DNA from: Prosthecobacter debontii | Lineage (GTDB): Bacteria; Verrucomicrobiota; Verrucomicrobiia; Chthoniobacterales; Chthoniobacteraceae | Length of the DNA: 52,737 bases | Assembly (NCBI GenBank): GCA_945861385.1 | Contig: CAMAUI010000018.1 | Coordinates: forward strand, 1-52,737 | Direction of reading: 5' to 3' | Part shown: piece after piece, positions 33,217 to 36,461 of the stretch | How positions within the stretch are numbered: the first letter of the stretch is position 1 | Layout: each line of letters opens with the position of its first letter | The notes under the pieces: generated by a model | The model's database searches: none | What the model saw: only the letters and a program-made list of their open reading frames with translations | Told to the model about the DNA's origin: nothing | Translations under genes and position numbers: made by a program

Positions 33217-33726
33217 ATGGTTTTCTGCAAATGGCTGCTCGTTGTTTCGTGCGCGTTCGTTTTTTCCGGCTGCAAGGATGCCGCGAAGGAAAGGCGCCGC
33301 GACGAACTCCGCGCGCTCATGCACGGCAACACCGATGACCCGGAGATCAAGGCGGCGATGGAGAAGGCGCGTGCGACGGTGGGCGATTTCCTCGCGGTGC
33401 TGCGGAAGCCGGCGGCGAACCAGACGCAATTCATGGTGCGCAAGGCCTACCCGACGCGCGAGGCCGGCCGGCGGCAGATCCTGTGGATCAATCAAATCAC
33501 CTTCGACGGCACCCTGCTGCATGGGGTGGCCGATGACAAAACGGCGGCCGTCGGCGCGGGCATCCCGCTCGATGGCAGGGTCGCGTTCCCGCCCTCGGAG
33601 ATCGCGGACTGGATGTTCAACGAGGACGGCAAGGCCGTCGGGGGGTTCATGCTCCGCGCGCTGAAGAACAAGATGAGCGCGGAGGAATGGGCGAAAATCG
33701 CGGAGAGGATCACGTTCAAGGAGTGA
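33217..33726 (+). CDS. DUF2314-type lipoprotein
   Basis: 169 residues from the ATG at 33217, chosen because it gives a lipoprotein signal (MVFCKWLLVVSCAFVFSGC, lipobox FSGC). The C-terminal two thirds match the DUF2314/YegJ pattern: FMVRKAYPTREAGRRQILWINQ followed by a variable strand and AFPPSEIADWMF. No function is established for the family. The frame opens further upstream to 33130, but that extension is Arg/Pro-rich without a signal. Orientation is the same as the following fusion gene, with a 78-bp gap. Confidence 0.75.
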   Translation: MVFCKWLLVVSCAFVFSGCKDAAKERRRDELRALMHGNTDDPEIKAAMEKARATVGDFLAVLRKPAANQTQFMVRKAYPTREAGRRQILWINQITFDGTLLHGVADDKTAAVGAGIPLDGRVAFPPSEIADWMFNEDGKAVGGFMLRALKNKMSAEEWAKIAERITFKE

Positions 33727-33804: not shown

Positions 33805-35991
33805 GTGGTCACTAAAAAGCGCATCCTTTTTGTCTGCACAGGCAACATCTGCCGGAGCCCGATCGCCGAGGGACTTCTCGCGCACGCGGTGAAAGGCCGC
33901 AAGGACATCGAGGTGAAGAGCGCCGGCGTGGCGACCAGCCACGGACAGCGGGCGAGCGAAAACGGCGTCGAGGCGCTGCGGCAGTGGGGCGTGGACATCA
34001 GCGGCATCCGCTCCCAGCCCGTCACGGACGACCTGGTCGAGTGGGCCACGCACATCTACGCGATGACGCGCGGGCATCTCGATGCGATCCTCACGTTTTT
34101 CCCCGAGGCGGCGAGCAAGGCGTGGCTGGCATGCGAATTCGAGCCATCGCTCGCGCACCAGCCCGAGGTGCCCGACCCCATCGGCATGGGCATGCACGCC
34201 TACCTCGCCACGCGCGATCATCTTTCCAAAGCGATGCCCTCGCTCATTAAACACATTGATTCGACCATGACCGCGAACAGCCTGCAGCAGCCACCCGATC
34301 CGAAAAAGACACTCCGCATCACCATCGGCGCGGACCACGGCGGCGTGGAGGTGAAACAGGCGATCCGCGATTCGCTGAAAGCGGAGGGCTACGTCGTCCA
34401 GGATGTCGGCACCAACACCGCGGACAGCGTGGACTACCCGGATTTCGCCGGGCGGGTGTGCAAGGAAGTGCTCACGGGCGAGGCGGACCTCGGCATTCTC
34501 GTGTGCAGGACGGGCATCGGCATGAGCATCTCCGCAAACCGCCACGCCGGAATCCGCGCCGCGCTGGTCACGAATGCCGGCGACGCAGCGACGACGCGCC
34601 GCCACAACAACTCGAACGTCCTCTGCCTCGGCTCTGTGAATGTCGCCGCCAACCAGGCCGGGCCGATCGTGAAGGCGTTTCTCACCACGGAATTCGAGGG
34701 CGGACGCCACGCACAGCGCGTGCAAAAGATCGAGTCGTGCGCCGATGCGGGCGGACGCTCACTGGCCGAGGTGGACAGCGCGGTCTTCCATGCCATCGAG
34801 GATGAGCACCGGCGCCAGCGCGAGGGCATCGAGCTGATCGCGTCGGAAAATTTCACATCCGCCGCCGTGATGGAGGCGCAGGGCTCCTGCCTCACCAACA
34901 AATACGCCGAGGGCTATCCGGGCCGCCGCTGGTATGGCGGGTGCGAGAATGTGGACGTCACCGAGCAGCTCGCGATAGACCGCGCGAAGCAGCTCTTTCC
35001 CGGCGCGGAGCACGTCAACGTCCAGCCGCATTCCGGCTCGCAGGCGAACACCGCCGTTTATTTCAGCGTGCTGCAGCCCGGGGATCGCATCCTCACGATG
35101 AACCTCGCGCACGGCGGGCACCTCACGCACGGGCACAAGGCGAATTTCAGCGGGCGCTTTTACGCCGTCACCCACTACGGCGTGTCGGAAAAGGACGAGC
35201 AGATTGACTACGACGCGCTGGCCGCGCTCGCGGCGCAGGTGAAGCCGAGGATGATCACCGCCGGGGCGAGCGCATACCCGCGCATCATTGATTTCGAGCG
35301 CATGCGGAGGATTGCGGACAGCGTGGGCGCGTACCTTTTCGTGGACATGGCGCACATCGCCGGCCTCGTCGCGGGCGGGCAGCACCCGAATCCGTGCGCC
35401 ATCGCGGACTTCACGACGACGACCACGCACAAGAGCCTGCGCGGCCCGCGGGGCGGCATCATCATTTGCAAGGAACAGTACGCGAAGGCGATTGATTCGC
35501 AGGTCTTCCCCGGCATCCAGGGCGGCCCGCTCGAGCATGTGATCGCGGCGAAGGCCGTGTGTTTCCACGAGGCATTGCAGCCGTCCTTCCGCGAGTACAC
35601 CGCGCAGGTCGTCAGCAACGCAAAGGCGCTCGCGGCGAAGCTCGCGCAGTGTGGCTATCGCATCGTCAGCGGCGGCACGGACAACCACCTCATGCTCGTG
35701 GACCTCCGCCCGCGCGGCCTCAACGGCGCGCTCGCGAGCGCGGTGCTCGACAAGGCGGGACTGACCGTGAACAAGAACGGCATTCCCTTTGACACCGAGC
35801 CGATCAGCAAGGGCGGCGGCATCCGCGTCGGCACGCCGGCGGTCACCACGCGCGGGATGAAGGAGGACGAGATGATGGAGATCGCCGACTTCATCCACCG
35901 CGCGCTCGAGGCCCGGGACAATGAAGCGGAACTCGCGGGAATCCGGGACGAGGTGCGCGCGTTCACGAAGCAATTCCCGCTGCCGTTCTGA
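33805..35991 (+). CDS. glyA: Three-domain fusion: low-molecular-weight protein phosphatase - RpiB - GlyA (serine hydroxymethyltransferase)
   Basis: 728 residues from the GTG at 33805 ([19 protein letters not shown]). Domain 1 (about 5-152) is a low-molecular-weight phosphatase with P-loop CTGNICRS (Cys11, Arg17) and general acid Asp124 in VPDPIG. Domain 2 (about 168-305) is ribose-5-phosphate isomerase B with IGADHGG, catalytic-type Cys234 in [14 protein letters not shown], and [10 protein letters not shown]. Domain 3 (about 318-728) is a complete serine hydroxymethyltransferase with [11 protein letters not shown] and PLP lysine Lys543 in [15 protein letters not shown]. All three keep their active sites and are joined in one frame without stops. 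The order mirrors Bacillus ywlE-ywlF-ywlG-glyA, as if that operon had been fused. Ile15 in the P-loop fits tyrosine- rather than arginine-phosphatase activity. It could couple pentose-phosphate and one-carbon metabolism. Confidence 0.93.
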
Positions 35992-36118: not shown

Positions 36119-36461
36119 GCGGCCATTCAGCGCACGATTTTCCGTCACATCGTGGGCTGCATCACCCGGGTGGACAATTACCCCAGCAAGCTCGGGAATC
36201 AGCGCGGACGAGCCGACTGCACCGAATTGGTGTTCGACGCGGCATGGATCAGGCTTTAAATGCTGGCTGCAAATGGCCATACTTTGTTCACAACTCCTCA
36301 AATATTACGCGTCGGCTTGGAACGGCTGGCGTTCTGCTCTTAGCCGCGGTTCAGCCGGGTTCGCATGAGTACTGGGTGGCAGGAGCACACTTTCTGGTCG
36401 CTCACAAGTGCGCTGCGATGAGCAGCGCAAATGGAGATCACAGGTTGCCTGGGAGGTGTTG
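36119..36461. other. Non-coding spacer before histidine kinase, unrecognised
   Basis: About 340 bp that appear more AT-rich than the surroundings (for example near 36255-36310). Short open frames are present on both strands, but none resembles a known protein. It probably contains the promoter of the kinase operon; the only strong signal is the Shine-Dalgarno GGGAGG at 36451-36456. Confidence 0.5.

What the first reader, a model, noticed from the sequence alone, without database searches (positions are those of the whole stretch)
33805..35991. One gene encodes LMW phosphatase, RpiB and GlyA in fused form
Three enzymes that are usually separate are joined in one 728-residue frame, each with its complete catalytic motifs. 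The order matches the Bacillus neighbourhood ywlE-ywlF-ywlG-glyA (phosphatase, RpiB, DUF436, GlyA), so a conserved gene order appears to have become a fusion with DUF436 lost or absent. This could link pentose-phosphate flux, one-carbon metabolism and a phosphatase in a single polypeptide. I do not know whether the triple fusion has been described; a two-domain RpiB-GlyA fusion may exist elsewhere in the phylum.
Basis: partly seen in the sequence, partly recalled or inferred. Interest (0 to 1): 0.85.

Follow-up and report, generated by a model that had tools for sequence, protein, structure and literature searches.

The report
Three-enzyme fusion gene with hidden start
A real bacterial gene joins a phosphatase, a sugar-phosphate isomerase and a one-carbon enzyme in one frame, a type already reported in 2008, but its sequence and that of its relatives suggest a second start codon inside it, so the cell may also make the last two enzymes as a separate protein.

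Summary
In detail: one open frame (33805-35991 +, 728 aa) carries LMWPc, RpiB and SHMT domains. Of 38 genomes of the order, own included, 25 have it intact, so it is no sequencing error. The triple fusion is not new: Hou et al. 2008 described Minf_1669 with the same three domains.

What I add. (1) The phylum shows separate genes, phosphatase + RpiB-GlyA, the triple frame, and phosphatase-GlyA without RpiB. (2) The gene is the only SHMT and ribose-5-phosphate isomerase found in the assembly. RpiB is missing or decayed in 22 genomes, all with another isomerase, against 14 of 36 intact fusions. (3) The phosphatase-RpiB border has an in-frame Met (ATG 34267) in 25 of 25 loci of the order, in RNA kept unstructured by synonymous codon choice; only the true start looks alike. 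Linkers without that Met lack the signal.

Most likely the gene yields the full protein and a 574-aa RpiB-GlyA enzyme. Use of the internal start is inferred, not shown.

The parts
33805..35991 (+). whole fused frame, LMW phosphatase - RpiB - GlyA, 728 aa from GTG 33805 (in-frame alternatives GTG 33778, TTG 33766)
33823..34245 (+). low-molecular-weight phosphatase domain (LMWPc, residues 7-147), P-loop CTGNICRSP
   Evidence: motif conservation
34267..34269 (+). proposed internal start codon ATG (Met155) right after the last phosphatase helix; would start a 574-aa RpiB-GlyA protein
   Evidence: Met in the junction of 25 of 25 loci of the order; synonymous low-structure signal; use not shown
34270..34302 (+). 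linker after Met155 (residues 156-166), pLDDT under 50 in the predicted structure
34318..34731 (+). RpiB domain (LacAB_rpiB, residues 172-309); only RpiB found in the assembly
   Evidence: no RpiA
34762..35895 (+). serine hydroxymethyltransferase domain (SHMT, residues 320-697); only SHMT found in the assembly

Best explanation
This is a genuine fused gene of Verrucomicrobiota, derived from the conserved gene order phosphatase-rpiB-glyA. RpiB and GlyA are truly one polypeptide and act as two independent housekeeping enzymes: it is the only ribose-5-phosphate isomerase and the only SHMT found in this assembly, so it supplies ribose-5-phosphate, glycine and one-carbon units, which meet in nucleotide synthesis. 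The phosphatase was joined in frame upstream, but the old start codon of the RpiB-GlyA gene was kept as ATG 34267 in an unstructured context without a Shine-Dalgarno. Ribosomes therefore most likely make two products, a 728-aa LMWP-RpiB-GlyA protein from GTG 33805 and a 574-aa RpiB-GlyA protein from ATG 34267, which could co-assemble, so that only part of the oligomers carry the phosphatase. Shown: frame, domains, single copies in the assembly, distribution, conservation of the junction Met, synonymous low-structure signal. Inferred: translation from the ATG, enzyme activities, mixed assembly, role of the phosphatase.
For: Domains and frame. Same frame in 25 of 38 genomes. One SHMT, one RpiB, no RpiA in the own genome, 93.7% complete. 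RpiB missing or decayed in 22 genomes, all 22 with another RpiB or RpiA; of 36 intact triple fusions 14 have another and 22 none (my tally; Fisher 7.5e-7). Internal ATG: a Met lies in a 27-codon window at the phosphatase-RpiB junction in 25 of 25 loci of the order, against 3 of 25 at the RpiB-GlyA junction and 47% expected from Met frequency. Fold energy of the 45 bases around it: median over loci -0.6 kcal/mol, against -10.4 for the mean at the other in-frame Mets of the same genes. Against synonymous shuffles: mean z +1.16, 24 of 25 positive; control positions -0.11, RpiB-GlyA junction -0.04. Scan of the gene: the 25 highest of 709 columns fall in two places, residues 13-17 (true start) and 154-173; the top 15 fall in the same two after collapsing to 11 genera. 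Nine linkers without a Met after the helix have no signal (mean z -0.11), 11 with it do (+1.25; one per genus), while the true-start z is positive in all 20. In phosphatase-GlyA fusions 12 of 13 have a junction Met, all with positive z (no chance expectation computed there). SD-free starts chosen by local unfoldedness are established (Scharff et al. 2011, abstract), and some Verrucomicrobia are SD-scarce (PMC10783764, passages).
Against: No expression data. The loci are related, so the p-values overstate independence; the kinship-aware pair test for RpiB loss had too few pairs to decide. In the window's own gene alone the signal is modest (z 0.61, p 0.28; linker z 1.03 against a control s.d. 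of 0.58), and L026 is the weakest of the 11 (linker z 0.24) with its Met at or inside the helix end. No Shine-Dalgarno precedes the ATG (duplex energy +0.6), and over the 37 triple fusions tested the internal sites pair worse with the anti-SD than the starts of separate RpiB-GlyA genes (medians 0.3 and -5.9). Relaxed codon choice in a disordered linker could mimic part of the signal, although the nine linkers without the Met do not show it. With RpiB-GlyA genes counted in, 29 of 64 intact fusions have a second isomerase found. About 6% of the genome may be missing, so 'only copy' is for the assembly.
Confidence: 0.68

Rival explanations
1. One obligate trifunctional polypeptide: only the 728-aa protein is made, and the fusion itself physically links phosphatase signalling, the pentose phosphate pathway and one-carbon metabolism.
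For: Uninterrupted frame in 25 of 38 genomes; P-loop, RpiB and SHMT residues conserved; the phosphatase join changes 8 times, gains and losses together, on a weakly resolved GlyA tree, so joining seems easy or favoured. In the pMMO-bearing family f15 and in f18 the linker has no start-like signal, so there a single product is likely.
Against: Conserved junction Met with start-like mRNA context in the window's order. In f15 the RpiB His-Asn pair is lost in 7 of 7 proteins read while a separate RpiB is present, so the link to the pentose phosphate pathway is broken just there. RpiB is absent from the middle in 13 loci read, so joint chemistry is not needed.
Confidence: 0.2
2. Neutral relic: the fusion and the ATG are left over from loss of a stop codon between neighbouring genes; the ATG is not used and the fusion has no consequence.
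For: Of 27 loci with a separate phosphatase gene, 11 have a four-base ATG overlap with RpiB-GlyA and 6 have the two genes in the same frame, so fusion by loss of a stop is easy; 23 changes of architecture on the tree.
Against: A Met in a variable linker in 25 of 25 loci over 11 genera, and synonymous sites kept unstructured, are not expected of a relic.
Confidence: 0.11
3. Sequencing or assembly error joined neighbouring genes.
For: None found.
Against: Same frame in 25 of 38 related genomes, and the same three domains in one protein in a published genome.
Confidence: 0.005

Closest known systems
Minf_1669 of Methylacidiphilum infernorum V4 (Hou et al. 2008, PMC2474590; passages seen)
   Same: One protein with SHMT, LMW phosphatase and RpiB domains, in the same phylum.
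   Different: Minf_1669 itself was not read here. In the family f15 of pMMO-bearing genomes, which I take to be its family by inference, the RpiB His-Asn pair is lost in 7 of 7 read and no Met follows the last phosphatase helix; the window's RpiB is intact, is the only one found, and follows a conserved Met.
RpiB-GlyA two-domain fusion of Verrucomicrobiota
   Same: RpiB joined directly to SHMT; 37 of 99 loci read.
   Different: There the phosphatase is a separate gene (27 loci) or was not found in the stretch read (10 loci).
Bacillales operon sua5 - LMW phosphatase - rpiB - DUF436 - glyA (ywlC, ywlE, ywlF, ywlG, glyA in Bacillus; names recalled)
   Same: Same gene order, checked in Salinicoccus halodurans; Sua5-phosphatase fusions occur upstream of RpiB-GlyA in L060 and L064.
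   Different: Genes are separate and DUF436 lies between rpiB and glyA.
YwlE / PtpB protein-arginine phosphatase
   Same: LMW-PTP loop CX4CR(S/T); an McsA-McsB arginine kinase pair is encoded in the own genome.
   Different: The specificity residue is Ile in the window (Thr in YwlE and PtpB; Ile favours phosphotyrosine, PMC8001253 passages). Among the 23 triple fusions of the order listed it is Ile 17, Thr 4, Ser 2.

Membership tests
Minf_1669-type triple fusion | LMWPc, RpiB and SHMT in one uninterrupted frame | tested here: met
   the order of domains in Minf_1669 is not stated in the passage seen
Serine hydroxymethyltransferase (GlyA) | full-length SHMT domain above cut-off with the PLP lysine | tested here: met
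   545.8 bits against 27; NF000586 618.7 against 335; K543 invariant in 33 rows; residue role recalled
Serine hydroxymethyltransferase (GlyA) | catalytic activity | not testable with these tools
   needs an assay
Ribose-5-phosphate isomerase B | RpiB equivalog score and catalytic Asp-His, Cys and His-Asn | tested here: met
   TIGR01120 165 against 138.65; D177-H178, C234, H267-N268; roles recalled. The residue after Cys is Arg here and variable in the phylum
LMW protein tyrosine phosphatase | CX4CR(S/T) loop and general-acid Asp | tested here: met
   Pfam 89.6 bits against 23.2; C11, R17, D124 invariant in 33 rows. No NCBIfam LMW-PTP equivalog reaches its cut-off
YwlE-type arginine phosphatase | Thr at the fifth loop position (PX5) | tested here: not met
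   Ile in the window; rule from PMC8001253 passages
Gene with in-frame internal translation start | conserved start codon in an initiation-like context | tested here: met
   across 25 loci of the order; weak in the window's own gene taken alone
Gene with in-frame internal translation start | a shorter protein made in the cell | not testable with these tools
   needs N-terminomics, ribosome profiling or a blot

The most novel reading that the evidence does not exclude
A metabolic fusion gene that encodes two enzymes by design: the full phosphatase-RpiB-GlyA protein and, from a conserved internal start without a Shine-Dalgarno, RpiB-GlyA alone. The ratio of the two would set how many phosphatase arms sit on a mixed oligomer of two essential nucleotide-precursor enzymes. 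In the methanotroph-like family both the internal start and the RpiB active site are missing, leaving a single chain with a dead RpiB spacer.
Probability: 0.45. Interest if true: 0.65.

Novelty: new variant of a known kind. Interest (0 to 1): 0.5.

Why it matters
The fusion was noted in 2008 as a sign of tight coupling between the serine and pentose phosphate pathways. The comparison here suggests otherwise: among the genomes examined the RpiB part is decayed or absent only where another isomerase was found, including the family that is probably that of the original report, and where it is the only copy the gene seems to keep a way to make RpiB-GlyA without the phosphatase. It is a natural series of fusion, retained start, domain decay and domain absence in one phylum, and a warning that an uninterrupted frame need not mean one protein.

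Tried and rejected
Sequencing artefact: rejected. Shine-Dalgarno at the internal ATG: none in the window, and the genes' own starts in the order mostly lack one too, with exceptions such as L023 and L024; over 37 triple fusions internal sites do not differ from the genes' own starts in SD energy (p 0.68, one-sided) but are weaker than the starts of separate RpiB-GlyA genes (p 9e-7). In some triple fusions of other families an SD-like stretch precedes an RpiB-start Met (L048, L057, L113). By the 27-codon window 12 of 14 triple fusions outside the order have a Met, but in L047 and L112 it lies inside the phosphatase helix, and 8 of those 14 also have a Met at the RpiB-GlyA junction, so the contrast between the two borders holds for the order only. 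Start of the long form in the window: the 45 bases at GTG 33805 fold at -14.2 kcal/mol, at TTG 33766 -9.3 and at GTG 33778 -6.2 (assigned to codons by their order), so 33805 rests on its conservation in relatives. Kinship-aware pair test: undecided. GlyA tree: weakly resolved, 21 of 93 inner branches starred, so change counts are rough. Solved structures: of 123 matches 60 were shown, each to the SHMT part alone. Literature searches for an RpiB-SHMT fusion: only Hou et al. 2008 describes it among what I opened; most other listed papers were seen as listings only. PMC12651746 (passages) and PMC2837039 (passages) do not mention the fusion there. Subscription papers are mostly not held. Not tested: DUF436 in the own genome; extra SHMT genes outside the own genome; RpiA in most RpiB-GlyA genomes.

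Full report
Observation. The frame 33805-35991 (+) is open and codes for 728 aa. Pfam places LMWPc at 7-147, RpiB at 172-309 and SHMT at 320-697, all far over the cut-offs; NCBIfam agrees for RpiB and SHMT, while no LMW-PTP equivalog reaches its cut-off. On the same strand a DUF2314 protein ends at 33726 and a sensor kinase begins at 36408. The own genome (4.29 Mb, 93.7% complete) has one SHMT, one RpiB and no RpiA. The nearest named relatives are Spartobacteria and Chthoniobacteraceae MAGs at 83% identity.

Already in print. Hou et al. 2008 write that M. [quoted passage not shown] A search for the locus tag finds that paper only. The triple architecture is known; the window holds another member.

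Distribution. Of 38 genomes of the order, own included, 25 have the full frame, 1 is cut by a contig end and 12 have a phosphatase-GlyA frame without RpiB. I then classed 99 loci of the phylum, the window's included; outside the order they were chosen by me, mostly one per family, so they are no random sample. Classes: triple 39 (37, plus 2 with a second GlyA fragment downstream), phosphatase + RpiB-GlyA 27, phosphatase-GlyA 14, RpiB-GlyA without a phosphatase in the stretch 10, all three separate 3, phosphatase + GlyA 3, GlyA alone 3. One of the 14 (L059) is triple in length with a decayed RpiB that Pfam still detects (57.6 bits), which makes 40 and 13. On a GlyA tree of 96 rows (8 close relatives dropped, 6 outgroup rows) the phosphatase join changes state 8 times, the RpiB join 6 times and RpiB absence or decay 6 times. 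The phosphatase seems to have been joined several times, because triple fusions of f38, f41, f60 and f66 lie among relatives in which it is not joined; support is moderate.

Is the RpiB domain working? In families f15 and f18, and in one RpiB-GlyA protein (L108), RpiB catalytic residues are lost, the His of the His-Asn pair in every one read. All 8 f15 genomes searched carry the methane/ammonia mono-oxygenase family PF02461 and are probably Methylacidiphilaceae (inference). RpiB is thus absent or decayed in 22 genomes: 12 phosphatase-GlyA genomes, G200, 7 of f15, G113 and G094. All 22 have another RpiB or RpiA. Of 36 intact triple fusions 14 do and 22 do not (G006 left out as incomplete). Fisher 7.5e-7, not corrected for kinship; the kinship-aware pair test could not decide, and with RpiB-GlyA genes counted in, 29 of 64 intact fusions have a second isomerase found. 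Where it is the only copy the fused RpiB is intact in the 22 loci concerned, so it very probably works.

The internal start. In the 25 triple fusions of the order a Met stands at the end of the last phosphatase helix (L026 less clearly than the rest) and opens a variable stretch in which the next residue is Thr or Ser in 22 of 25, as at many protein N-termini. In the predicted structure the helix ends at residue 154 and residues 156-166 have pLDDT under 50 (mean pLDDT 85.3, pTM 0.58). The 45 bases around this ATG are among the least structured of each gene (median share of codons as unstructured 0.0015). Shuffling synonymous codons keeps the protein and tests the RNA alone: the observed RNA is less structured in 24 of 25 loci (mean z 1.16), while control positions (-0.11) and the RpiB-GlyA junction (-0.04) are near zero; in the window's gene alone z is 0.61 and not significant. 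In a scan over 709 alignment columns the 25 highest fall in two places, the true start (residues 13-17), which serves as a positive control, and residues 154-173. As a negative control, nine linkers at the same place without a Met after the helix (7 of f15, counting L047, L050, L112 and L114-L117, then L059 and L045) have no signal (mean z -0.11), against +1.25 for 11 with it, L026 being the weakest at 0.24. In 12 of 13 phosphatase-GlyA fusions a junction Met is present although RpiB is not, so what is kept seems to be the start, not the linker. This is the pattern Scharff et al. 2011 describe for SD-free starts, with internal AUGs usually structured (abstract). A paper on SD use lists Akkermansia muciniphila and another Verrucomicrobia among SD-scarce organisms (passages).

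Origin. In the 27 loci with a separate phosphatase gene the candidate start of RpiB-GlyA forms a four-base ATG overlap with the phosphatase stop in 11, and in 6 the two genes share a frame. Losing a stop in the latter state makes the fusion and leaves the old start in place. The wider order Sua5, LMWP, RpiB, DUF436, GlyA was confirmed in Salinicoccus, and Sua5-phosphatase fusions stand before RpiB-GlyA in L060 and L064.

The phosphatase. An ATP-guanido kinase domain was found in 26 of 26 genomes searched (none of the 14 control genomes rang, B. subtilis among them, in which I recall McsB, so the search may miss some), and the own genome has McsA next to McsB (McsB passes one NCBIfam cut-off, McsA is below its own). 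The only other LMWP-like match in the own genome resembles arsenate reductase, below that model's cut-off. The fused domain is thus the candidate partner phosphatase, but its loop residue Ile points to phosphotyrosine rather than phosphoarginine. I leave this open.

Judgement. Real, already described as an architecture, a member with an intact RpiB that is the only one found, and with good comparative evidence for a second product. Not shown: any protein.

Noticed in passing
L060:832-1965, L064:760-1953: Sua5 domain fused to the LMW phosphatase just upstream of RpiB-GlyA, so four operon genes are reduced to two fusion genes.
   Followed up: partly
L059:1486-3708; L047; L050; L112; L114-L117: RpiB domains inside the fusion that lost catalytic residues but stay in frame, in a pMMO-bearing family and one neighbour family; each of these genomes has a separate RpiB.
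   Followed up: yes
G005 C308:3560-3700 and G004 C35:637-777 (L009, L010): A second copy of the last ~47 residues of GlyA about 700 bases (G005) or 500 bases (G004) downstream of the fused gene in two same-genus genomes.
   Followed up: no
L118:487-2094 (own genome, contig C117): McsA-McsB protein-arginine kinase pair in a verrucomicrobial genome; the kinase domain is in 26 of 26 genomes searched.
   Followed up: partly
G082, G073, G109, G196, G103, G181, G156: A further RpiB copy lies in an open frame of about 420-460 aa, perhaps fused to another domain.
   Followed up: no
G185 contig C1 689037-689288: In one pMMO-bearing genome the decayed RpiB is reduced to an 86-position match in a 276-aa frame, as if the fusion had split.
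   Followed up: no
window 34504-34521, RpiB loop CRTGIG: The residue after the RpiB active-site Cys is Arg, Lys, Thr or other in this phylum, not the Gly I recall from E. coli RpiB.
   Followed up: partly
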